Of a DNA stretch of 64,000 nucleotides, positions 15,240 to 60,540 are shown one piece after another. This stretch comes from Methyloferula stellata AR4. GTDB taxonomy: Bacteria > Pseudomonadota > Alphaproteobacteria > Rhizobiales > Beijerinckiaceae. Every line of letters starts with the position of its first letter. Within the stretch, counting starts at the first letter, position 1. Position numbers and translations under genes: made by a program. The stretch is taken from NCBI RefSeq assembly GCF_000385335.1, contig NZ_ARWA01000001.1, positions 3,798,001 to 3,862,000 of the forward strand, read 5' to 3'. The notes beneath the pieces were generated by a model that had not been told where the DNA came from, ran no database searches, and was given only the letters and a program-made list of their open reading frames with translations.

Positions 15240-16121
15240 TTACTGGAAGAGCTTCAGGATAAGCTGGGTATTGGTGTTGGCGATGCTGAGCGCCTGAATA
15301 CCGAGTTGCTGCTGGACCTGGAGAGCCGAAAGCCGTGTCGAGGCCTGGTTCATGTCGGCATCGACCAGCGAGGCAACGCCATTCGTCAAAGAATTCGAAA
15401 GCGCGGTGACGAAGGTCTGCTGGTTGGTGATGTTGGTCGTGGTGGCGCCCAGCGTCGAAGAGGCCGTGGTGATCGAGCTGACCGCCGTCTGAAGATCCGT
15501 CAACATGTTTTGAATGGCGCCGGAGGTCACGCCGTTGATGTTGAGCGTGAGAATCGAAACGCCGGAAGCCGTTCCGGCGCTATCCAGAATGCCGCCGCCG
15601 ATCGCCAGCGTACCGTTGAAAAGCTGGGTTGTGGTCGTGTCGATATTGATGGTCGAAACGCCGTTTGCCGGGTCATAGGAGGCGACGAGCCCGACCGTTC
15701 CAGGGGTGGTCGTATTAAGGAAGTTCTGGCCGTTGAAGTTCGCCGCGTTGCCGATGCTCAACAGCGCCTGCTGCTGCGACTGGATATCGGTTTGGATCGA
15801 CGCCTGATCGGCGCCGGGCTGCTCCGCACTGATCAGATCGTTCTGGATCTTGGTCATGATCGACAGGGTGCTGTTCAGCGCCGTGGTCATGGTCGACAGC
15901 AAGGAGCCGCTTTCGTTAAGCGCGTCGGAGACTGCGCCCAAGGCCGAATTCTGCGACGACATCTTCGTCCCGATCGACCAATAAGCGGCATTATCCGCGG
16001 CCGTCGAAATTTTCAGACCGGTGGAAACCTGGCTTTCCGTGGTCTGCAGATTTTGCTGCGTCATATTGAGAGCTTGGAGTGCCGTCAAAGCCGATGCGTT
16101 AACGAGAATGCTGCTCGACAT
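15240..16121 (-). CDS. Flagellin (copy 1)
   Basis: This 293-residue flagellin makes up the filament. The conserved N-terminal D0/D1 coiled coil contains LQTTESQVSTGLKISTAADN, and the C-terminal one contains QQLGIQALSIANTNTQLILK, ending KLFQ. The variable middle is very short, as in many alphaproteobacterial flagellins. By my reading it differs from the neighbouring copy at only about 14 of 293 residues. A structured leader of about 110 bases covers the ribosome-binding site, and an intrinsic terminator follows the gene. It is monocistronic as far as the sequence shows. Confidence 0.97.
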   Translation of the reverse strand: MSSSILVNASALTALQALNMTQQNLQTTESQVSTGLKISTAADNAAYWSIGTKMSSQNSALGAVSDALNESGSLLSTMTTALNSTLSIMTKIQNDLISAEQPGADQASIQTDIQSQQQALLSIGNAANFNGQNFLNTTTPGTVGLVASYDPANGVSTINIDTTTTQLFNGTLAIGGGILDSAGTASGVSILTLNINGVTSGAIQNMLTDLQTAVSSITTASSTLGATTTNITNQQTFVTALSNSLTNGVASLVDADMNQASTRLSALQVQQQLGIQALSIANTNTQLILKLFQ

Positions 16122-16472: not shown

Positions 16473-17354
16473 TTACTGGAAGAGCTTCAGGATGAGCTGG
16501 GTATTGCTGTTGGCGATGCTGAGCGCCTGAATACCGAGCTGCTGCTGGACCTGGAGAGCCGAAAGCTTCGTCGATGCCTGGTTCATGTCAGCATCGACCA
16601 GCGAGGCAACGCCATTCGTCAAAGAATTCGAAAGCGCGGTGACGAAGGTCTGCTGGTTGGTGATGTTGGTCGTGGTGGCGCCCAGCGTCGAAGAGGCCGT
16701 GGTGATCGAGCTGACCGCCGTCTGAAGATCCGTCAACATGCTTTGAATGGCACCGGAGGTCACGCCGGAGATGTTGAGCGACAGAATCGAAACACCGGAA
16801 GCCGTTCCGGCGGTATCCAGAATGCCGCCACCAGCCGCCAGCGTACCGTTGAAAAGCTGGGTTTTGGTCGTGTCGATGTTGATGGTCGAAACACCGTTCG
16901 TCGGGTCATAGGAGGCGACGAGCCCGACCGTTCCCGGCGTCGACGTATTGAGGAAGTTCTGGCCGTTGAAGTTCGCCGCGTTGCCAATGCTCAACAGCGC
17001 CTGCTGCTGCGACTGGATATCGGTTTGGATCGACGACGAGTCGGCGCCGGGCTGCTCGGCCGAGATCAGATCGTTCTGGATCTTGGTCATGATCGAGAGG
17101 GTGCTGTTCAGCGCCGTGGTCATGGTCGACAGCAAGGAGCCGCTTTCGTTGAGCGCGTCGGAGACCGCGCCCAAAGCGGAATTTTGCGAGGACATCTTGG
17201 TTCCGATTGACCAATAAGCGGCGTTATCCGCGGCCGTCGAAATTTTCAGACCGGTGGAAACCTGGCTTTCCGTGGTCTGCAGATTTTGTTGCGTCTGACT
17301 AAGCGCCTGAAGGGCTGTCAAAGCTGACGCGTTAACGAGTATGCTGCTCGACAT
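16473..17354 (-). CDS. Flagellin (copy 2)
   Basis: This is the second 293-residue flagellin, about 95 percent identical to the one at 15240-16121, with substitutions scattered mainly in the surface-exposed middle (for example ILSLNISG for ILTLNING). It has the same D0/D1 ends. It lies 155 bases after fliP and carries the same leader and terminator type, so the unit gene-leader-terminator was duplicated as a whole. Sequence near both gene ends is almost identical at base level, suggesting recent duplication or gene conversion. Confidence 0.97.
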   Translation of the reverse strand: MSSSILVNASALTALQALSQTQQNLQTTESQVSTGLKISTAADNAAYWSIGTKMSSQNSALGAVSDALNESGSLLSTMTTALNSTLSIMTKIQNDLISAEQPGADSSSIQTDIQSQQQALLSIGNAANFNGQNFLNTSTPGTVGLVASYDPTNGVSTINIDTTKTQLFNGTLAAGGGILDTAGTASGVSILSLNISGVTSGAIQSMLTDLQTAVSSITTASSTLGATTTNITNQQTFVTALSNSLTNGVASLVDADMNQASTKLSALQVQQQLGIQALSIANSNTQLILKLFQ

Positions 17355-49474: not shown

Positions 49475-49963
49475 TCAACCCTTCCAATGCAAGGCTGTGA
49501 TGAGCGTGAAAAGACGGCGCGCCGTATCATGATCGCAAGCAATCTTGCCTTGCAGCCGCTCCATCAAAAGGGTCGATGCCTCATTGTGCAGGCCGCGCCG
49601 GCCCATGTCGATCGCTTCGATCTGGCTCGAAGTCGCGGTGCGGATGGCGTGGTAATAGCTTTCGCAAATCATGAAATAATCCTTCAAGACGCTGCGAAAC
49701 GGCGTCAGTGACAGGATATGAACGATGAGCGTTGCGCCATCTTCATTGCAGATTTCGAAGGCGAGCTTCGAATCGTGCAAGGCGATGTTCAGCCGATAGG
49801 GGCCGGCATCATGCTCCGGCAGGCCGAACGTATTCTCCTCAAGGAGATCGTAGATCGCGACCTGCCGTTCGTGTTCCTGATCGGCCGTGCCACGGCCGAT
49901 CGAGGCTTCATCGAGCGTGACCGCGACGAGACGATTGCGTCCTTGCGGATCGGCTTCGCTCAT
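49475..49963 (-). CDS. UPF0262 family protein
   Basis: This 162-residue protein is of the UPF0262 family, found downstream of hisD in alphaproteobacteria: [60 protein letters not shown] and [20 protein letters not shown]. Function unknown. The ATG at 49963 overlaps the hisD stop (ATGA), indicating coupling. Confidence 0.92.
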
Positions 49964-51261
49964 GAGGCTTGTGGATCGAGTCGCATTTGAACCGAGCGGG
50001 CATGCGCATCCAATCCTTCGGCTTTTCCAAGCGCGACGGCGGCCGGCCCGAGCACCGCAAGGCTCGCGGAATCGCATTTCAAAATCGATGTCTTCTTCAT
50101 GAAATCGAGCACGTTGAGGCCGGACGAAAACCGTGCCGAGCGCGCCGTCGGCAATACGTGATTGGAGCCGCCGACGTAATCGCCGATCGCCTCCGGCGTA
50201 TAGGCGCCGATGAAGATCGCGCCTGCGTTGCGAACGTGGCTCGCAATGCCCTCTGCATCCTCGGCCATGATTTCGAGATGTTCCGGCGCGAGCCTGTCGG
50301 CAAGCGGAATGGCGTCCATCAGGCTCGCGACCTCGATGATCGCGCCGAAATCGCGCCAGCTCGGCGCGGCAATTTCCTTGCGCGGCAGGTTGGCCAATTG
50401 GCGCTCGACGGCGGCCTCGACCGCCGAGGCGAGTGCCGCATCATCGGTGATAAGGATCGATTGCGCCGCACTGTCGTGCTCGGCCTGGGCCAGAAGATCG
50501 GCCGCGATCCACTCTGGATTGGCACTCTTGTCGGCCAGGATCAGGACCTCGGAGGGCCCCGCGATCATGTCGATGCCGACGGTGCCGAAGACCCGGCGCT
50601 TGGCCGCGGCCACATAGGCATTGCCGGGACCGACGATCTTCGCAACCGGCGCGATGGTCTTCGTGCCATAGGCCAAAGCCGCGACCGCATGTGCGCCGCC
50701 GACGCGATAGATCTCGTCGACGCCGGCAAGATGCGCCGCCGCGAGAACCAGCGGATTGATCTTGCCGTCAGGCGCCGGCACGACCATCACGAGGCGCGAG
50801 ACGCCGGCGACCTTGGCCGGCGCCGCATTCATCAAAACCGAGGACGGATAGGAAGCCGTGCCGCCGGGCACATAAAGGCCGACCGCCTCGACCGGCAGCC
50901 AACGCCAGCCGAGTTCGACACCGAGCGGATCGGTGAAGCGCAAATCCTGCGGCTTTTGCCGCTCATGGAAAGCGATGATGCGCTCATGCGCCAGGCGCAG
51001 AGCAGCGACGGCATCGGCCGGCGCAATCGCAACCGCGGCGTCCACTTCGGCCGGCGTGACGCGCAAGCCCAGCGCCTCGAGATCGACGCGGTCGAATTTC
51101 TTCGAAAACTCGATCAGCGCCTCGTCGCCGCGCGCGACGACGGCCGCGATGATCGCCTGGACCGTGTGATCGACGTCCTCGGAGGCCTCCCTCTTCATTG
51201 CGAGAAGTGAGTCGAAGGCGGATTTGAAATCGGGGCTGCGCATATCGAGCCGCAGCGGCAT
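49960..51261 (-). CDS. hisD: Histidinol dehydrogenase
   Basis: HisD performs the last two steps of histidine synthesis. The 433-residue protein starts [20 protein letters not shown], with AAGGA eight bases ahead of the ATG at 51261. Signatures include [78 protein letters not shown] with zinc-binding residues, and [18 protein letters not shown]. It heads hisD-UPF0262-phosphatase. Confidence 0.97.
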
Positions 51262-51308
51262 GGCATCATTCCTTATTGCGAGAAGAGGAGCTTCACATAG
51301 CACATCGG

Positions 51309-51788
51309 CTATAAAAGCTGCTCGATTTCTCCCTCAAGCTCGACAGGCGCGGTCGTCGGCGCAAAGCGCGCCGTCACCTTCCCCGAACGATCGATCAGGA
51401 ACTTGGTGAAATTCCATTTGATCGCTTCCGTCCCGAGCACGCCTTTTTGCTCGCCCTTGAGAAAACCGTAAAGCGGATGCGCGGCCGCACCATTGACATC
51501 GATCTTGGCGAACATCGGGAAGGTCACATCATAGGTCGCCTGGCAGAATTTTGCGATCTCCGCGGCATCGCCCGGCTCCTGCGAGCCGAATTGATTGCAC
51601 GGAAAGCCGAGAACCGCGAAACCGCGCGGGCCATATTTGCGATAGAGCGCTTCGAGGCCAGTATATTGCGACGTGAAGCCGCATTTGCTCGCCACGTTCA
51701 CGATCAGCAGGACCTGGCCGGAGAAACCCGCAAGCGATTTATCCTGTCCGTCCAGTGCCTTGGCCGAAAAATCGTAGATCGTGCCCAT
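51309..51788 (-). CDS. Glutathione peroxidase family thiol peroxidase
   Basis: This 159-residue peroxidase has the catalytic block VNVASKCGFTSQYTGLEALY, with cysteine instead of selenocysteine. VLGFPCNQFGSQEPGDAAEI and KWNFTKFLIDRSGKVTARF complete the active-site tetrad (Cys, Gln, Trp, Asn). Such bacterial enzymes usually use thioredoxin. It lies 47 bases upstream of hisD and borders the phage-like module on its right; the 190 bases between contain no gene. Confidence 0.94.
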   Translation of the reverse strand: MGTIYDFSAKALDGQDKSLAGFSGQVLLIVNVASKCGFTSQYTGLEALYRKYGPRGFAVLGFPCNQFGSQEPGDAAEIAKFCQATYDVTFPMFAKIDVNGAAAHPLYGFLKGEQKGVLGTEAIKWNFTKFLIDRSGKVTARFAPTTAPVELEGEIEQLL

Positions 51789-53625: not shown

Positions 53626-54246
53626 TCAGGCGAGCCCGGTGCCGCGGTTCAATCCGCGCAAGATGCGTTTGGCGATCAGCGTCAGGTTCTGGCGCTTTTT
53701 AAGACCATTGACGCCGCCGTTGATCGCGCGTGTGATTTCGGTCGAAGCAAATTGAAAACTCAAGCGATCGTCATGATCCCGATCGGCCCAAAGATTGAGA
53801 TCGCCCTTGCCTGAGCCCTGATGCCAAAACCAGCAATCGACCGCGAAGGAAATGTCGGCACGCGCGGCGACAAGCTCGGGATGCGCGACGAGATCAATCG
53901 AGGAATCATCGAGCGCGGCGCGCACGAAGGGCGTGGCACGGGCGTAATTGGCGCGGCCCGTCAGCTCGATCTCGCCCTCGCCTTTGAAGCGCATGCCGTC
54001 GCCGGGCCGCGTGTTGCCGAGGTCCTTGCGGCGTTCATATTCACGCCCGCTCGCATATTCGATGCGGGTGTGAAAGCCGTCGCTTTCATGCGCGCATTGA
54101 CCGATGAAATGCGCGGCGCGATTAATGGTAGCGAAGCCATAACGCGGCCCGATCCTTTTGAGGTTTTCGCAAAAGGGCTCGATGATGTCTTGCTTGGCGA
54201 AAGGTGCGAGCATCCGCAGGTCTTTGGCGCTCGGATAAATCATCAA
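53626..54246 (-). CDS. Glycoside hydrolase family 19 endolysin
   Basis: This 206-residue chitinase/lysozyme-type murein hydrolase is of the phage kind. The first catalytic glutamate lies in GQCAHESDGFHTRIEYASGR and a second candidate in GREYERRKDLGN. GEGEIELTGRANYARA matches the GRGxIQLTGRxNY signature of GH19. The second half contains FAVDCWFWHQGSG and TEITRAINGGVNGLKKRQNL, typical of GH19 endolysins. It has no signal peptide, so export would need a holin. Start is TTG at 54246 or ATG at 54243; an intrinsic terminator sits 12 bases upstream. Confidence 0.92.
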   Translation of the reverse strand: MMIYPSAKDLRMLAPFAKQDIIEPFCENLKRIGPRYGFATINRAAHFIGQCAHESDGFHTRIEYASGREYERRKDLGNTRPGDGMRFKGEGEIELTGRANYARATPFVRAALDDSSIDLVAHPELVAARADISFAVDCWFWHQGSGKGDLNLWADRDHDDRLSFQFASTEITRAINGGVNGLKKRQNLTLIAKRILRGLNRGTGLA

Positions 54247-54257
54247 AAAAAGCTCAC

Positions 54258-54279
54258 AAAAAAGCCGCCCAGAGGCGGC
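54258..54279 (-). terminator. Intrinsic terminator just ahead of the endolysin gene
   Basis: On the minus strand GCCGCC-TCTG-GGCGGC is followed directly by TTTTTT (hairpin 54264-54279, T tract 54263-54258). This canonical terminator points toward the endolysin, whose start is 12 bases beyond. It either ends the leftward tail transcript or works as an attenuator that must be read through for lysis. The rest of the 54280-54424 gap holds the start region of the opposite-strand gene. Confidence 0.8.
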
Positions 54280-54424
54280 GGAGGCAGCGGAATGGGGCGA
54301 TTTCTAAATCGGCCTTGGAAGATCGCATGAGGACCGATATGCAAGCTTGCATCAGCGAGATTAGACTTGAGCCCAATTGGCCGTTATTTAACGTTCAAAC
54401 GCGTCGTTCGTTGGTGAGATCGTG

Positions 54425-56716
54425 ATGCTGATCAGTACGATAATTCTTAACTGGAATCGCGCCTTATTACTCGAGCAGACGCTGCGCAGCTATGCCGCCA
54501 CCGCGCGCGAGCCTTACGAGATCGTCGTTGTCGACAACGGCAGTACGGATAATTCTCGCACCGTCATTGAGAGCCTGCGCCACCTTATCCCTAAGCTGAA
54601 ATCGATCTTCCTGCCTGAAAATCTCGGAGGCGAGGCTATCAACGTGGCTCTCGATAAAGCGGCGGGAGACCTCATACATATTAGCGAAAACGACCAGCTC
54701 TTCGGTGAAGGTTGGTCCGAACATGCCAGGCACGCTTTTCTCTGCTTCCCGGATTTGGGCCAATTGTCTCTCCATGGCATCTCTCCGCCCGATGAAGAGG
54801 CCTGGGCGATCAAATCGGCGCATCTCCGGTTTGCGAATGGCAAAATACTATATGAAGCGCAGGGCAATGTGGGGACGTCATCTATCATCAGATCGTCTCT
54901 GATCCGTGACGCTCATATTCGCATATATAATATTCCCACCGAACATCCGGACGCATTCAAATTCCCAGATGACGGGCGGCTGTCCGACGAGATCAAACAG
55001 ACAGGATATTGGTGTGCGTGGTCCGAAAGATATTATGTCAGGAATCTAGGTCATGAACTGGAAGAGTTCGCACGTGACCCCGACTATTATCGGGAAAACT
55101 ACCAATCGAAATCATGGCTCGGACTAGACGGCTGGCAAAAGCGGATCGCCACCGCGCAAGCGCGCCGCAATATAAGACGGCACTCGATCGTGTTCCCGCA
55201 AGCGCATGTTCAACCGGAAAAAACCCAGAGACAGGTCGCTACCAAGCCTGCACAATTCTGGTCCATGTTTGATGGATTCACTGCTGAAACAGAGGTGCTC
55301 GATTTTCTTTACGCGCTCATTCGCATGGTAAAGCCTGAAAACGCCATTGAGACCGGAACCTGGCTTGGACGGTCCGCAGCCGCAATCGCTTCAGGCATGC
55401 GAGACAATGGATTTGGCCGCCTTTTCACGATCGAACACAATGAGCAAACCGTTTCAATCGCCCGTCAGCTCATCGATAATGCCCAATTGAACACATTCGT
55501 CGAAATTCACATCGCGAACAGCTTGGAGTTCGATGCGGGGGAGACGCGTTTTCAATTTGCTTTGTTCGATTCTGAAATTTCGATTCGGGCCGAGGAATTC
55601 AGAAAGTTTTATGACCGTTTGGAACCGGGGGCGACGGTCGTGTTTCATGATACTGCCGAGCAACATCCAGGTTCGGCAGACAACGTTATCGACTTGAAGA
55701 CAATGGGACTTCTCGAAGGCATGTTCTTCGAGACGCCGAGAGGTCTCTTTGTTGGACAAGTGCTGAAACCGGCACAACCAAAAATGGGCGGGGTGCTGCG
55801 TGGGCTTCCACGCGGCTTTTCCGCTGCATCGTACCTCGACGCCAATCCCGATCTGGCAGTTGGAGAGCTGGATGCAGCAGAGCACTATCGCACGGAAGGA
55901 TGGCGTGACGGCCGAAAATTGGCGCCCGATTGGTCGCTTGACGGTAAAAGACTCGTACTTACCGTTACTCCTGGCCGAAGCGGTACCGGCTACCTCGCCG
56001 CCCTTGTGAATGCCATTCCGGGAATTGATGCCTTACATGAACCCGAGCCAAAATTTTCCGACGTGATGCGTCTAGCCCAACATGACCAAGGAGCTGCCAA
56101 AAGGTTTTGGCTTACCCAAAAGCTTCCGGCGATCCGGCGTAGCTCAGAAAATACATATGTCGAGACGAGTCATCTGGCGTGCAAGGGCTTCATCGAACCG
56201 CTTTTAGACAATCACCTGGTGCCGGACTTGATTATTCTTGAACGTGACCCGTTCCTGGTCGCAACCAGTCTTTATCTCTTGGACACAGTCCCTGCCCGAA
56301 CCTCTTTAGGCGAGAAGTTTTTGCTGCGGCCAGATGATCCAAACGTTAGTCCGCTCGAAGGTTGGCAGGATCTACACGATTGGGCTCTTTGCTTTTGGTA
56401 TTGTCGCGAGATCGAGCGCCGAATGAAAATTTACGCCAAGCTCGTAGAGCAGCATGGCGGCCGGGTCATCGCAACATCGATCGAAGCCCTGGCGACCCAA
56501 AAAGGTCTTCATGACATGACAGAATTCTTAGCAAGCAACGCCGCGCCGCTGCAAGATAGCGAAGTTCTGCAGCGGCAGACCGAGGTTGTTAATGAAAAGG
56601 CTGACCTGAAGATAAAATTGGCAATCGATAGCGAAATGATGCTTGATTTGGCTCGCGACGTTGACCGGCGCTTGAGTCATTCATCGCAATTCCAGATGCC
56701 TAAGGTTCCGGCCTGA
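54425..56716 (+). CDS. Glycosyltransferase-methyltransferase-sulfotransferase fusion protein
   Basis: This 763-residue protein appears to have four parts. Residues about 1-220 form a family 2 glycosyltransferase with STIILNWNRALLLEQTLRSY, VVDNGSTDNSR and END (88-90) in place of DxD. Residues about 265-445 form a methyltransferase with ENAIETGTWLGRSAAAIASG and ATVVFHDTAEQH. Residues about 464-502 match a short domain seen in rhizobial surface proteins (YLDANPDLAVGELDAAEHYR). Residues about 510-760 resemble a sulfotransferase: TVTPGRSGTGYLAALVNAIP and LIILERDPFLVATSLYLLD are the two PAPS-phosphate sites. It has no signal peptide. GGTGAG precedes the ATG. It is AT-richer than its neighbours and on the opposite strand, so probably acquired. 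Role inferred: decorating a glycan or virion part. Confidence 0.8.
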   Translation: MLISTIILNWNRALLLEQTLRSYAATAREPYEIVVVDNGSTDNSRTVIESLRHLIPKLKSIFLPENLGGEAINVALDKAAGDLIHISENDQLFGEGWSEHARHAFLCFPDLGQLSLHGISPPDEEAWAIKSAHLRFANGKILYEAQGNVGTSSIIRSSLIRDAHIRIYNIPTEHPDAFKFPDDGRLSDEIKQTGYWCAWSERYYVRNLGHELEEFARDPDYYRENYQSKSWLGLDGWQKRIATAQARRNIRRHSIVFPQAHVQPEKTQRQVATKPAQFWSMFDGFTAETEVLDFLYALIRMVKPENAIETGTWLGRSAAAIASGMRDNGFGRLFTIEHNEQTVSIARQLIDNAQLNTFVEIHIANSLEFDAGETRFQFALFDSEISIRAEEFRKFYDRLEPGATVVFHDTAEQHPGSADNVIDLKTMGLLEGMFFETPRGLFVGQVLKPAQPKMGGVLRGLPRGFSAASYLDANPDLAVGELDAAEHYRTEGWRDGRKLAPDWSLDGKRLVLTVTPGRSGTGYLAALVNAIPGIDALHEPEPKFSDVMRLAQHDQGAAKRFWLTQKLPAIRRSSENTYVETSHLACKGFIEPLLDNHLVPDLIILERDPFLVATSLYLLDTVPARTSLGEKFLLRPDDPNVSPLEGWQDLHDWALCFWYCREIERRMKIYAKLVEQHGGRVIATSIEALATQKGLHDMTEFLASNAAPLQDSEVLQRQTEVVNEKADLKIKLAIDSEMMLDLARDVDRRLSHSSQFQMPKVPA

Positions 56717-56737
56717 CGGCTACGGCACGCGTAGCCG
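56717..56737 (+). terminator. Hairpin after the fusion gene
   Basis: CGGCTAC-GGCACGC-GTAGCCG is a perfect seven-base stem beginning at the first base after the TGA stop. No T tract follows on either strand, so it is a weak or factor-assisted terminator, or it blocks readthrough between converging transcripts. Confidence 0.4.
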
Positions 56738-56780
56738 ACGTGAGATCGGCCTTCAAACCTTGGCGGCGCACTCGCCTCCC

Positions 56781-58265
56781 TCATCCCATCCGATACCAAG
56801 TTGTGCTGGCGAGATCGTAGATCATCGCAAAGGGAGTCGCCGGACCTATCGCCGACGGTGCACCGCTGATCGACTGGCCGGCGTTCGGCGAGACCGTTAA
56901 AGCCGTTACGGTCTGCGACGACAACACGCGCACGATATGTCCATCGATAGGCGCGGCGGGCATGATGACTGTTCCGGTAGCAAGCGTGCCGGCGGGAGTC
57001 AGCAGCAGCGTCGTGGATGAATTGCTTATCGTGATCGAGAACCCCGCCGCCGGAGTTTGGGCTGTTTTGCTTTGGTCGGCCTGGGCGCCTTGGAAGCCGA
57101 TCTGACCCGTGCCGAATACTTCCAATCGAACCGTTAGAGTGGTCGTACCCGGCGCCGTCACGCCGATGGTGACGTTCGTTCCCTGTGCTGTATCGCTCCA
57201 ATTCTCGGCGGCGGTAAACCGTACGGCTGCCTTGTTGGCTGATGAAAATGCTGTCGCGCCATATCCGCGCGCGCCGAACTGGCCGAGGAAATCACCCGAT
57301 TGCAGCGCTGCTGGAGACGTTGGAGTACCGCGGGCATTTCGAAAGACGAGGTTCGCTACGTTCGGATTGGAGTTTCCACCGGCGTAATATTCGAACATGG
57401 CAGGTGCGATGCTGCCGCCTGATTGGGACGCATAAAGCGACGCTAATCCCCCAGGGGTATTGCCGGATATTCCATTGTTTATCATTGCGGCGGAGAGTGC
57501 TATTCCGAAATTCGCCGTGACGAGGCCTGATGAATTCGTAATATCGAGCGCGTCGTGCCAGGTCGTACCATCTGGCGAGACCTTGAAGTGAAAATTATCG
57601 TCGCCGCAAAGCCCGACTTGCGCGCGGCCTGAGAATCCATCTTCATAGATCGTCGACGCTGTGTTCGACGAAGCTGCCTTATTGATGGTGAAGTTGAAAC
57701 TGCCGGCGCTGTTGAAGAGCGCGCTCGTGCCGAAGACCGAGAGCGGATTATTCGGATCGGCCGGCGTACCTATGCCGACCGGCGGCAGATTGCTCGTCGC
57801 TTGATCGATCACCGTCCATCTGCCGGCGCCATTGCTCTGCAAAGCCAGATAGCCATAGGCCATCGAAATGACGGCGCTCGTAGCACCATCGATCATATCC
57901 GAGCCCGCGCGGCCGATGGTGATCGTATCTGTCGCCGAACAGGACCCCGACTCGTCCAGGACGGTGAGCGCCGTCCCCGCCGGATAGGCGTTTGCGGCCG
58001 GCAAAGTCACGATGCGCGCCGCCGTGATCGCGCTATAGGCAATCGTGCGGTCAGATACGAGAGCGGTGTAATTGGCATCCGCGACGGCGGTCCGCGCATT
58101 GGTGATGACCTCAGAGAGCTTCGCCGTTGGCCAGCCCCCGGCTGTCACACCGTCGTGAACCTGGATGCGATTGTTCGTCGTGTCGACGGTAATCTCGCCG
58201 ACCCTGCCGACAAAGGTCGAAAGGAAAGAGAAGGCTTCGCGAAGATGTTGAAGTCTGATGCTCAT
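56781..58265 (-). CDS. Phage tail fibre-like protein
   Basis: This 494-residue protein opens MSIRLQHLREAFSFLSTFVG. The segment EITVDTTNNRIQVHDGVTAG with GWPTAKLSEV is a typical N-terminal module of tail fibres and phage tropism determinants. The remainder is rich in Ser, Thr, Asn, Ala and Gly with beta-type repeats and few charged residues, as in receptor-binding fibres. It ends SGAPSAIGPATPFAMIYDLA followed by STTWYRMG. It lies after the tail-tip gene and points away from the fusion gene's promoter; the 3' ends converge. Confidence 0.8.
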   Translation of the reverse strand: MSIRLQHLREAFSFLSTFVGRVGEITVDTTNNRIQVHDGVTAGGWPTAKLSEVITNARTAVADANYTALVSDRTIAYSAITAARIVTLPAANAYPAGTALTVLDESGSCSATDTITIGRAGSDMIDGATSAVISMAYGYLALQSNGAGRWTVIDQATSNLPPVGIGTPADPNNPLSVFGTSALFNSAGSFNFTINKAASSNTASTIYEDGFSGRAQVGLCGDDNFHFKVSPDGTTWHDALDITNSSGLVTANFGIALSAAMINNGISGNTPGGLASLYASQSGGSIAPAMFEYYAGGNSNPNVANLVFRNARGTPTSPAALQSGDFLGQFGARGYGATAFSSANKAAVRFTAAENWSDTAQGTNVTIGVTAPGTTTLTVRLEVFGTGQIGFQGAQADQSKTAQTPAAGFSITISNSSTTLLLTPAGTLATGTVIMPAAPIDGHIVRVLSSQTVTALTVSPNAGQSISGAPSAIGPATPFAMIYDLASTTWYRMG

Positions 58266-58335
58266 GCAAGCATGCTTCCTATTTTATCGCATTTTCGAGC
58301 GCAAAACCGGTATCCACTTTTGCTGAAAGTGCTCA
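58266..58335 (-). repeat. Dispersed repeat at the tail-tip stop codon
   Basis: Reading leftward from the TGA at 58335-58333 the sequence continues GCACTTTCAGCAAAAGTGGA and then TACCGGTTTTGCGCTCGAAA. It matches the GAGCATTTTC-AGCAAAAGTGGATACCGGTTTTGCG element that recurs in Hyphomicrobiales genomes. It fills nearly the whole gap between the tail-tip and fibre genes, and again begins at a stop codon. Confidence 0.65.
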
Positions 58336-60540
58336 TGATGATGCAAGTCCGAGATCGATGAAATTCGGAAATGGATCGGAGGCGAAGCCGAAGTCGTCAT
58401 ATTCGGCCGGCGTTCCGCTCGCCAGGCCACAATCGACATTGGTGCCGACCGCGAGCGCTTGCGCGACAGGGCCAAGCAGGCTCGACCCGACCGGCTTGAA
58501 ATCATAGGCCGTGCAATCGGCGAGCGATTGCACGGCATTGCCGAAGACATTGAAGCTCTGAAACTTCAGAAAAAAGCTTGTTCCGATATAGAGAATCGGC
58601 AGAGCATATTTGAAGATCGCATTGTCGAGACGCGTAAAGACCGCGCCGCTCGCATGAGAGGCCGGCGACGATCCATAGATGCCGCGGGCAAGACCCGTCA
58701 GCGCATAGGTGTTCGGTCCGGTGAGCGCCGCCGTCGTATAGGTCAGGAGTTCCTGATCGATGACGCAAAGCGTGACACCGTTTTCCGCGTCGCTTGTCGT
58801 GGCCGAATTCAAAACGCCGTTGCTCTCTGCCATATTCACGGCGAGCGCATCGACCATATCGATCGTACCGAACGGCGCCGCATTGGAAGTCTGACCAGAC
58901 GACGATGCAAGCGGCGCCGCGAGAACGCCTTGCCGCGCCGGAGCCGCGACCGTTCCAATGGCCGTATAGGTCGTATTGTCTTTCGAGATCCAAATGACCG
59001 CGCCGCCCCAATTGGGATCGGCGACGCCGGACGTTCCACCGGACAGACCGATCCACACTTCCGCTTCGCCATTCGCCGTCAATGCCGCCGGCGGTTCCAT
59101 AATCAAAGGCGGATTGACGGAAGCAGGCGCCATATTGCGATTGACGCTGTTCCCTCCGGAGGTTTGGACAGGATAGGTGGCGGCCGTCGCGGTACCGGCG
59201 GGAAACTCTTCCGCCGTTACGGCAAGAAGCCCGTTTTCATCCTCGTCGATTTCGATGATGCGCACCGCACTGTCGTAAAGCCCAAGGCCCGCGTCGGTGA
59301 TCGTGACAAGATCCATCGGCTCGAGCAGGCAATATTCCCAAGAGAGCTTGAACGCATATGTGTTGCGAATATAAAGCCCACGCTGCAGGATGAGCTGGGC
59401 CGATGTCATCGCCACATTGGCATCGCAAATTTCATGCGCCGTCACCGTCGAGGCAATGCGCAGCCCATAAAGATCGATCGCATTTTGATCGAAGGCTGTA
59501 AGCGGCGTCGCGGCATAGGCATTCGAGCGGTCAAGGATCTCGATCGGCTGCATGTTATAGGCAGCATAGGGATCGGTCCGCGCGACCTGCACGGGATCGT
59601 CGCCATCCGTATAGATGAAATCATCATCGGTCAGATTGTAGACTGGGGTCAGATCCGGCGTGAAGGTCGCGCCATTGCCAGTGGCCGCCGCATCGCCATA
59701 GGGAATGAATTTGAGCTTGCCTCCCGACCAGATCGCCGCCGTGTTCGTGAGCTGGAGCCAGCGTGCCAAAATGCTGTTCGCCGCTTCCTGATTTGTCAGC
59801 ATTGGTGAGAGCGCTATGCCGGTGGTCCGGCAATAGGCCTGATAGCTGGCTGCGCCGCTGAACAATGTTGTCGCATCAATGCCGGCCGATGGAAATCCGA
59901 CTCCATATTGCGCATTGGTCAGAAAGTCCTGGATGATCTGCGCCGGGTCGCCATCGCTCAGGCCGGAAACGCCGGTCGATCCGCTTAAGACGCCGAAAAT
60001 CTCGACATTGGTGATATCGAGCGAGCCGCTGGACCCTAAGTTGTAATTGGGTGCCGCGAGATAGGCGAGACCGGGGTAAGCGATGGCTTGGTCCGCGTGC
60101 TTACTCGATAAATAGCCCCAGATGCTTTGCGGCACCGTGCCGCTGAACAAGGACATGGACGCGTCCTTGACGGCCGCGTTCGACAAAGCGGCTGCGATCG
60201 AGTTAATCGGCGGGTTGACCGTCGATAGCGAATAGCTGCTCTGGCCCTTCCAGATCGTCCCGATCGCGCTGATCGGCCCTTCACAGAGACCCATGATGAT
60301 GGCGATCACATAAAGATAGCCATTCATCTGCAGGCTCGAGCCGCCACCGCCCTTACCGCTGCTCGGCGTAGACGTATATTGCGGGATCGAAGTGAAATCG
60401 GCTTCCCAGACGATATTCGGAGCGAGAACATTCTGTCCGTAGGCGATCGGAACCGGCAGCGCATTGCTGGAGGTCTGGATCTGAAGACCTGTGTAGCTCG
60501 GCTGGACCGTTGGTGCCGGGCTCGAATGCGACCCGCTCAT
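58333..60540 (-). CDS. Phage/GTA tail-tip (host-specificity) protein
   Basis: This 735-residue protein is of the phage tail-tip family that includes the non-TIM part of RcGTA gp15. Early segments are NALPVPIAYGQNVLAPNIVW and a glycine-rich loop. Central segments are DPAQIIQDFLTNAQYGVGFP, NSILARWLQLTNTAAIWSGG and LSWEYCLLEPMDLVTITDAG. The C-terminal part has LTGLARGIYGSSPASHASGA and ends in tandem GLAS/GFAS turns (VDCGLASG, FGFASD, LGLASS). The ATG at 60540 overlaps the NlpC/P60 stop; the frame runs further upstream but only as an antisense-like arginine-rich stretch. Confidence 0.88.
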   Translation of the reverse strand: MSGSHSSPAPTVQPSYTGLQIQTSSNALPVPIAYGQNVLAPNIVWEADFTSIPQYTSTPSSGKGGGGSSLQMNGYLYVIAIIMGLCEGPISAIGTIWKGQSSYSLSTVNPPINSIAAALSNAAVKDASMSLFSGTVPQSIWGYLSSKHADQAIAYPGLAYLAAPNYNLGSSGSLDITNVEIFGVLSGSTGVSGLSDGDPAQIIQDFLTNAQYGVGFPSAGIDATTLFSGAASYQAYCRTTGIALSPMLTNQEAANSILARWLQLTNTAAIWSGGKLKFIPYGDAAATGNGATFTPDLTPVYNLTDDDFIYTDGDDPVQVARTDPYAAYNMQPIEILDRSNAYAATPLTAFDQNAIDLYGLRIASTVTAHEICDANVAMTSAQLILQRGLYIRNTYAFKLSWEYCLLEPMDLVTITDAGLGLYDSAVRIIEIDEDENGLLAVTAEEFPAGTATAATYPVQTSGGNSVNRNMAPASVNPPLIMEPPAALTANGEAEVWIGLSGGTSGVADPNWGGAVIWISKDNTTYTAIGTVAAPARQGVLAAPLASSSGQTSNAAPFGTIDMVDALAVNMAESNGVLNSATTSDAENGVTLCVIDQELLTYTTAALTGPNTYALTGLARGIYGSSPASHASGAVFTRLDNAIFKYALPILYIGTSFFLKFQSFNVFGNAVQSLADCTAYDFKPVGSSLLGPVAQALAVGTNVDCGLASGTPAEYDDFGFASDPFPNFIDLGLASS

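What the first reader, a model, noticed from the sequence alone, without database searches (positions are those of the whole stretch)
54425..56716. Three-enzyme fusion (glycosyl-, methyl-, sulfotransferase) embedded antisense in a phage tail/lysis module
Seen: GT2 motif VVDNGSTD, a methyltransferase core with ETGTWLGRSAAA, a YLDANPDL-type linker domain, and sulfotransferase PAPS sites TPGRSGTGYL and RDPFLVATSLYL in one frame, on the opposite strand between fibre and endolysin, with AT-richer sequence. Known: modifying enzymes beside fibres can change receptors or virion surfaces. Inference: a morphon encoding a single protein that adds, methylates and sulfates a sugar on the cell surface or virion.
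Basis: partly seen in the sequence, partly recalled or inferred. Interest (0 to 1): 0.72.

Follow-up and report, generated by a model that had tools for sequence, protein, structure and literature searches.

The report
Three-enzyme sugar-modifying gene beside prophage fibre
A phage-derived element in what looks like an acid-soil methanotroph carries, between its tail-fibre and lysis genes and on the opposite strand, one gene that fuses a sugar-adding, a methyl-adding and a sulfate-adding enzyme, and a sister species has a different methylating enzyme in that same place, which suggests an exchangeable cassette that re-coats the cell or the particle.

Summary
Window 54425-56716 (+) is one intact 763-aa gene among minus-strand tail and lysis genes. 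GT2 and Methyltransf_24 domains are significant. The C-terminal sulfotransferase is below Pfam's cut-off but has the PAPS-sulfotransferase fold (AlphaFold2 pLDDT 82; Z 14.6 to human TPST1). A metagenomic copy is 93% identical with Ka/Ks 0.16, so the fusion is real and selected. Beyond that copy my searches found no other three-domain fusion.

The better finding is the site. In a same-genus genome (G001), flanks 78-88% identical enclose a different antisense gene, a two-methyltransferase fusion, and the adjoining C-terminal half of the fibre has diverged too; the metagenomic copy with the same fusion has a uniformly similar fibre. A third genome has a lone antisense methyltransferase there, a fourth an esterase. 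The element lies beside hisD in three genera (a remnant in one).

Best reading (0.45): an exchangeable cassette pairing fibre tip with an enzyme that alters a surface glycan, for superinfection or self-exclusion. Virion decoration is the main rival (0.30). It is a new variant of a known kind, phage-borne glycan modification. The fibre-cargo link rests on one swap and one control; no substrate or expression was tested.

The parts
54425..56716 (+). 763-aa GT2 - Methyltransf_24 - linker - sulfotransferase fusion gene (the cargo)
54434..54721 (+). GT2 domain (residues 4-99)
   Evidence: PF00535 E 1.3e-14; D37, E88-N89-D90 and D183 invariant in the three sequences of A1
55346..55654 (+). Methyltransf_24 domain (residues 308-410)
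   Evidence: PF13578 E 6.4e-14
55817..55924 (+). YLDANPDL...HY..EGWRDGR linker (about residues 465-500); no Pfam match there
   Evidence: read
55874..56713 (+). sulfotransferase-fold domain as modelled (residues 484-763)
   Evidence: AF2 pLDDT 82.3 pTM 0.82; Foldseek 2.7e-5; VIA Z 14.6
55967..55996 (+). 5'-PSB-like motif TPGRSGTGYL (residues 515-524)
   Evidence: T, G, R, G invariant in the 10 rows of A2
56243..56269 (+). 3'-PB-like motif RDPFLVATS (residues 607-615)
   Evidence: R and S invariant in A2
54223..56780 (.). the slot: 2558 bp between the BLAST-matched flanks, replaced by 1403 bp without BLAST match in same-genus genome G001
56781..58265 (-). Mtd_N tail fibre; its C-terminal half (56781-57515) diverges together with the cargo
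   Evidence: PF18454 E 4e-9
53626..54243 (-). endolysin, GH19-like
   Evidence: PF00182 E 1.8e-7; phrog_9506 E 5e-34
58333..60540 (-). 735-aa tail-tip protein (Phage-tail_3, Rcc01698_C)
54264..54281 (-). terminator-like hairpin just upstream of the endolysin; kept in L010, broken in G001
   Evidence: scan total is at chance: 5 found, 4.7 expected
49960..51788 (-). hisD-like and glutathione-peroxidase-like host genes flanking the element (names by eye; homologues beside the element in G001 and G060, hisD only in G075)

Best explanation
The gene is an exchangeable moron-type cassette of a vertically kept, phage-derived element. SHOWN: one intact polypeptide with GT2, O-methyltransferase-like and sulfotransferase-fold domains, no predicted membrane span, under purifying selection, antisense between fibre and endolysin; a different enzyme gene in that slot in a same-genus genome; the fibre's C-terminal half diverged along with it. 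INFERRED: that this half holds the receptor-binding tip; that the gene is made in cells not producing particles (opposite strand from the late genes); that in the cytosol it adds a sugar to a surface-glycan precursor, methylates it and sulfates it; and that the altered glycan is the receptor, or masks the receptor, of the matching fibre tip, so carriers are not re-infected or struck by their own particles. Fibre tip and enzyme would therefore travel together.
For: Domains and fold. Intact and selected (Ka/Ks 0.16, 763 codons). Slot swap with retained flanks. Replacement has two methyltransferase domains. Fibre C-half mismatches 218/735 against N-half 85/632 to G001 (other cargo; Fisher p 4e-13), but 65/735 against 73/632 to L010 (same cargo; p 0.11); protein profile. 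Other antisense methyltransferases in the slot: G060 hisD locus, IMG/VR contig L114. Element kept nearly gene for gene beside hisD in another genus; tail-gene Ka/Ks 0.08-0.11. Highest 19-residue hydropathy 1.12, none over 1.6.
Against: No substrate, expression or phenotype data. No promoter-like site found upstream on the + strand (1 found in the region, on the other strand, 1.8 expected), though sigma-70 consensus scans are weak here. The fibre-cargo co-swap is one event with one control pair, and fibre tips often diverge anyway. Of 55 IMG/VR relatives with a readable slot, own contig included, only 2 were seen to hold such an enzyme, within the genes scanned. In G016 the GT-MT homologue is co-oriented with the tail genes. 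A relative of G001's cargo N-domain lies in the head operon of other phages, which favours virion modification. Other antisense genes after the fibre in this family are of unknown kind: 291 aa in G088 (no Pfam family), 138-149 aa in G045 and G004 and a doubtful 633-aa call in G072 (not scanned against Pfam).
Confidence: 0.45

Rival explanations
1. Virion decoration: the enzyme glycosylates, methylates and sulfates the neighbouring tail fibre (or another virion protein), altering adsorption or shielding the particle.
For: It sits next to the fibre, changes with the fibre's C-terminal half, and is soluble by hydropathy. A 51%-identical relative (203 residues) of G001's cargo N-domain lies sense-strand two genes after the capsid gene in L185, with the same order by gene calls in L184 and L186. 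G016's GT-MT is co-oriented between fibre and endolysin. Mycobacteriophage precedent: an O-methyltransferase gene and three tandem glycosyltransferase genes, said to modify capsid and tail tube (passage in PMC11600133).
Against: Opposite strand from the late genes in the window, L010, G001, G060 and L114. The fibre's changing half is not richer in Ser/Thr than the other (0.217 against 0.216). No match of the window protein in 50,697 phage records.
Confidence: 0.3
2. Captured host polysaccharide gene: the slot is a permissive insertion point and the enzyme serves a host capsule or exopolysaccharide, with no role tied to the element.
For: GT-MT homologues (49-50%) lie in what look by eye like non-phage chromosomal contexts in three Eremiobacterota/WPS-2 MAGs; standalone sulfotransferase relatives in 9 of 397 genomes of the order, one near glycan-type genes by eye; low GC.
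Against: Three genomes fill the same slot with methyltransferase-containing genes, L114 does so in a more distant element, and the fibre half changes with the cargo.
Confidence: 0.17
3. The domains act separately, or one or more is inactive: for example a capping or scaffold protein rather than a three-step enzyme.
For: Sulfotransferase matches in the 10 family members scanned are no better than E 0.045; the GT2 metal motif reads E-N-D rather than the usual DxD (usual motif recalled); full-length model failed.
Against: GT and MT motifs are conserved between window, L010 and G016, and the sulfotransferase motifs across its family; Ka/Ks 0.145, 0.183 and 0.181 in the GT, MT and ST parts.
Confidence: 0.08

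Closest known systems
Phage morons for lysogenic conversion of surface glycans (recalled: gtr O-antigen genes; Acinetobacter prophage wzy genes, PMC13228068, abstract and outline seen)
   Same: Phage-carried gene set apart from the structural genes that alters, or is expected to alter, the host's surface polysaccharide
   Different: One fused GT2-MT-sulfotransferase; no membrane flippase or anchor partner noticed beside it; changes with the fibre's C-terminal half; sulfotransferase domain
Virion glycosylation in mycobacteriophages (Freeman et al. 2023, not held; cited in PMC11600133, passages read)
   Same: Glycosyltransferase plus O-methyltransferase carried by a phage
   Different: There separate tandem genes; here one fusion with a sulfotransferase, on the opposite strand
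FkbM methyltransferase ORF 21 of Sinorhizobium phage AP-16-3, apparently p021, listed next to tail fibre gene h (PMC10460002, passages read)
   Same: Methyltransferase of the sugar-modifying type apparently beside a fibre in an alphaproteobacterial phage
   Different: Single domain; no surface role proposed in the passages I saw
Brevundimonas phages vB_BpoS-Polewnik and Strzyga
   Same: Capsid-like protein 61-62% and tail tip 40-41% identical to the element
   Different: Polewnik has tip, two small genes, then lysozyme, with no enzyme annotated between; Strzyga's region not read
RcGTA-type gene transfer agents
   Same: Tail-tip module: GTA_TIM, DUF2460, baseplate-hub (DUF2163-type), NlpC/P60-like, Rcc01698_C (NlpC/P60 and DUF2163 names by eye)
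   Different: Capsid is of the Brevundimonas-phage type; tip proteins and terminase share 25-38% with G016's cluster, whose RcGTA type is judged from gene order only

Membership tests
GT2 glycosyltransferase (PF00535) | Profile match over the curated cut-off | tested here: met
   54.9 bits, cut-off 23.3
GT2 glycosyltransferase (PF00535) | Metal-binding DxD-type and base Asp residues | tested here: inconclusive
   E88-N-D90 and D183 invariant in 3 sequences; E-x-D is not the canonical DxD (recalled)
Methyltransf_24 / TylF-like O-methyltransferase | Profile match over the curated cut-off | tested here: met
   Methyltransf_24 53.1 bits, cut-off 26.3
PAPS-dependent sulfotransferase | Pfam Sulfotransfer_1/_3 cut-off | tested here: not met
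   12.1 bits against 22; best E 0.045 among the 10 members scanned
PAPS-dependent sulfotransferase | Sulfotransferase fold | tested here: met
   All 7 Foldseek hits at E <= 0.001 are sulfotransferases; the first 26 of 50 VIA rows shown are sulfotransferases, Z 14.6 to 10.4; the first other fold (adenylate kinase) has Z 10.4
PAPS-dependent sulfotransferase | 5'-PSB and 3'-PB motifs | tested here: met
   TxGRxG and the R and S of RDPxxxxxS invariant in 10 rows; motif definitions recalled
Phage moron | Extra gene between phage modules, absent from relatives at that point | tested here: met
   None annotated in Polewnik; no antisense gene in G075's slot and no seed match there; none in L107 by gene calls
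Phage moron | Own promoter and terminator, expressed in the lysogen | tested here: inconclusive
   Opposite strand; no promoter hit above chance
RcGTA-like gene transfer agent | Packages random host DNA | not testable with these tools
   -
RcGTA-like gene transfer agent | RcGTA-type head genes | tested here: inconclusive
   Capsid-like protein is nearest to Brevundimonas phages among phage records; not compared with RcGTA itself

The most novel reading that the evidence does not exclude
The element is a domesticated, vertically inherited particle (GTA- or tailocin-like) that carries matched weapon-and-immunity cassettes: the fibre tip chooses the sugar receptor and the antisense enzyme re-marks the producer's own sugars, so kin are spared. 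Cassettes swap as a block, as in polymorphic toxin-immunity pairs, but with a glycan code in place of a protein antidote.
Probability: 0.18. Interest if true: 0.85.

Novelty: new variant of a known kind. Interest (0 to 1): 0.52.

Why it matters
It gives a concrete, testable case of a phage-derived element pairing a fibre with an enzyme that may rewrite a surface sugar. It adds a sulfotransferase to phage-borne glycan tools (no paper in the library held any of four phrases such as 'phage-encoded sulfotransferase' or 'viral sulfotransferase'). If the pairing holds in more strains, fibre-adjacent enzymes could help predict which glycan a fibre binds, and would show how a kept prophage avoids hitting its own host.

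Tried and rejected
Artefact or chance ORF: rejected by the 93% metagenomic copy and Ka/Ks. Full-length structure: failed, pLDDT 36.6, not used. Sulfotransferase by sequence against PDB: phmmer best E 1.5 (TPST2) and profile hits at E 0.6 to an unrelated enzyme, not used. NCBIfam: for the whole protein mainly GT2 models, all far below their cut-offs; for the C-terminal part nothing useful. Relatives of the fusion in phage records: none of 50,697; plasmids: 9 of 72,556, one domain each. A first GTDB contig scan with the full protein found nothing; the second, with the GT-MT alignment and only two peptide patterns, found 4, so absence elsewhere is weakly tested. The large genome searches scored at most 2 or 4 candidates a genome. 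A GT/MT/ST seed search of 2805 ORFs in the 80 IMG/VR loci hit only the own contig, and one with six seeds of 539 ORFs in the 13 family stretches hit only G060's gene. Pfam on 123 slot proteins of the IMG/VR loci: GDSL lipase 6, lysozyme 5, one methyltransferase, no GT and no sulfotransferase among the families listed; this set left out each locus's first sense gene, duplicates, proteins over 650 aa (so also the fusion itself), under 120 aa, and all after the fourth per locus. BLASTP finds no significant similarity between the window protein and G060's methyltransferase or L185's protein; hhalign of GT-MT with G001's gene is not significant. G001's C-terminal domain and G060's protein are weakly related (23%, E 1e-7). 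Relatives of G001's C-terminal domain alone exist in 5 other genomes of 149, contexts not read. Alignment A2 left out two of the nine order-level sulfotransferase genomes (G409, G302) and added G029.

Papers: searches. No title or abstract start listed described a GT-MT-sulfotransferase fusion in a phage; I read listings, one abstract with outline, passages of five papers and the full text of one, so this is weak evidence of absence. The AMO search of the own genome rang in no control, so absence of pMMO is not shown.

Full report
WHAT IS THERE. The ORF at 54422..56716 (+) is real: 763 aa from the ATG at 54425. Pfam gives Glycos_transf_2 (residues 4-99, E 1.3e-14) and Methyltransf_24 (308-410, E 6.4e-14). 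The C-terminal part is below Pfam's sulfotransferase cut-off (12.1 of 22 bits), and in the 10 members of its alignment the best match is E 0.045. With those 10 sequences AlphaFold2 gives a good model of residues 484-763 (pLDDT 82.3, pTM 0.82). All seven Foldseek hits at E <= 0.001 are sulfotransferases. The VIA list is led by tyrosylprotein sulfotransferases (Z 14.6, rmsd 3.6, 211 residues); the first 26 of the 50 rows shown are sulfotransferases, and the first other fold, adenylate kinase, is at Z 10.4. A full-length model failed (pLDDT 36.6), so how the domains are arranged is unknown. The highest 19-residue Kyte-Doolittle mean is 1.12, so the protein is probably cytosolic.

IT IS SELECTED AND FOREIGN-LOOKING. 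IMG/VR contig 3300001213_001473 (L010) carries the same gene at 93% identity in the same gene order. Ka/Ks is 0.160 overall; 0.145, 0.183 and 0.181 in the GT, MT and ST parts. GC is 0.524 against 0.582 for the window, and GC3 is 0.56 against 0.65-0.80 in the ten other element genes compared.

DISTRIBUTION. In its own genome the only other match is a weak one (E 0.009). Of 149 close genomes, own included, 7 match at E <= 1e-8, and apart from the own genome only G016 over more than one domain. Of 397 genomes of the order 11 match at 1e-12: own, G016 (GT-MT only) and nine with the sulfotransferase alone. Of 385 of the class only the own genome matches. Of 349 of the phylum, searched with the GT-MT alignment, own and G016. 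A GTDB contig scan with two peptide patterns gave four GT-MT homologues at 49-51%: three Eremiobacterota/WPS-2 MAGs in surroundings that look non-phage by eye and one contig of the same length as G016's, presumably the same. None in 50,697 phage records. The full three-domain fusion was seen only in the own genome (also as IMG/VR contig L011) and in L010.

THE ELEMENT. From the small gene beside gpx/hisD to the terminase it is a head-tail-lysis cluster of about 27 kb, with an S24-peptidase gene some 3 kb further on, beyond a citrate-transporter-like gene. Its capsid-like protein is 61-62% and its tail tip 40-41% identical to Brevundimonas phages Polewnik and Strzyga. I recognised no integrase, but not every gene was scanned. 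In G075, another genus, the cluster is kept nearly gene for gene beside hisD: S24 82%, terminase 79%, capsid 79%, portal 69%, NlpC/P60-like 69%, tail tip 52%; the endolysin, the 63-aa and 138-aa genes, the 103-aa gene and gpx had no match in the stretch tested there. Between own and G001, Ka/Ks is 0.083 (tail tip), 0.078 (NlpC/P60-like), 0.109 (DUF2163-type), 0.165 (endolysin) and 0.184 (fibre part), against 0.052 for part of hisD and 0.183 for gpx. So it has been kept and selected, although one G001 tail gene has an internal stop, possibly an assembly error, since G001 is 78% complete in 450 contigs.

THE SLOT. G001 is the one same-genus genome that I saw. It has the endolysin side at 88% and the fibre side at 78%, but instead of 2558 bp there are 1403 bp holding one gene in the same antisense orientation: 415 aa, Methyltransf_23 plus a TylF/Methyltransf_24 domain. 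Homology stops around the endolysin start codon and resumes at the fibre's stop codon. The fibre's C-terminal half has diverged with it: mismatches 218/735 against 85/632 in the N-half (p 4e-13). L010, with the same cargo, shows no such step (65/735 against 73/632, p 0.11). At G060's hisD locus, where the tail tip is truncated, a 252-aa antisense Methyltransf_24 gene (E 1.4e-14) directly follows an Mtd_N fibre; a 197-aa gene and an amidase come next. G075 has a sense-strand GDSL esterase there. So three of the four hisD-locus elements seen carry an antisense methyltransferase-containing gene, each different. In G016, at another locus, the GT-MT homologue is co-oriented between a DUF2793 fibre and a lysozyme.

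HOW GENERAL. Of 149 genomes 32 have a match to the tail tip, 13 of them over a large part; enzymes of these kinds were seen in the slot of three of the 13 (G000, G001, G060), and a search of 539 ORFs in the 13 stretches fetched (G001's fibre-side contig and the other eleven genomes) with six seeds found only G060's. Two (G027, G033) are cut by contig ends soon after the fibre. G088 has an antisense 291-aa gene with no Pfam family; G045 and G004 have an antisense 138-149-aa gene after the fibre and G072 a doubtful 633-aa call, not identified. In IMG/VR, 80 loci with a related tip were kept (limit reached); 55 show at least 800 bp beyond the first sense gene, taken as the fibre. Besides the own contig only L114 was seen to have such an enzyme: an antisense FkbM methyltransferase (33.0 bits, cut-off 22.7; start codon chosen by me) before an M15 peptidase. 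L107, with a fibre that starts alike, goes on to a lysozyme-like gene (by eye) with only a 42-aa ORF between. The antisense-enzyme cassette is therefore uncommon and, so far as seen, clustered in this family.

MECHANISM. The opposite strand argues for expression apart from the late genes and so for a lysogenic-conversion moron. The co-swap with the fibre's C-terminal half argues that the product bears on adsorption. Against this stands a relative of G001's N-terminal methyltransferase (51% over 203 residues), which lies sense-strand two genes after the capsid gene in L185, with the same order by gene calls in L184 and L186; that placement suits virion modification. I put host-glycan modification at 0.45 and virion decoration at 0.30.

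SOURCE. The own genome is one contig of 4,235,448 bp with two Phenol_Hydrox-family matches and no AMO match (no control rang). Methyloferula stellata AR4 is reported at 4.24 Mb with sMMO only (PMC4358397, full text). The match is suggestive, not proven.

Noticed in passing
G000:C1 about 3849979-3880183 (window 51979 to beyond its end; L012, L013) and L102/L103: A 27-30 kb phage-derived head-tail-lysis cluster is kept beside hisD in two genera with S24 regulator, terminase, capsid and tail genes aligned one to one (a remnant in a third); it may be an undescribed domesticated particle outside the RcGTA type.
   Followed up: partly
L184 6989-8035, L185 6989-8323, L186 6989-8320: A 349 (cut) to 445-aa gene with an N-terminal methyltransferase and, in L185 and L186, a sub-threshold MptE-like match (about 19 bits, cut-off 34.6) follows the capsid gene and a 141-146-aa gene in three IMG/VR contigs; a possible virion-modifying enzyme.
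   Followed up: partly
L079, L080, L082: In three Eremiobacterota/WPS-2 MAGs the GT-MT gene is directly followed by a second class I methyltransferase gene (those of L079 and L082 are 61% and 66% identical to L080's), a conserved pair.
   Followed up: partly
L077 3105-4301: G060's hisD locus keeps only a truncated tail tip next to an intact-looking fibre, antisense methyltransferase and lysis genes; a second, fuller copy lies elsewhere in that genome (L078).
   Followed up: no
L073 8949-9365 (+) and L075 6046-6495 (-): A small antisense gene of 138-149 aa follows the fibre in both genomes of genus g4; unidentified.
   Followed up: no
window 15240-16121 and 16473-17354: Two tandem flagellin-like genes, nearly identical over the first 60 residues, in a flagellar cluster filling about the first 32 kb of the window (by eye).
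   Followed up: no
window 54264-54281 (-): GC hairpin followed by six T just upstream of the endolysin start, kept in L010 and broken in G001; it could terminate transcripts coming from the fibre.
   Followed up: partly
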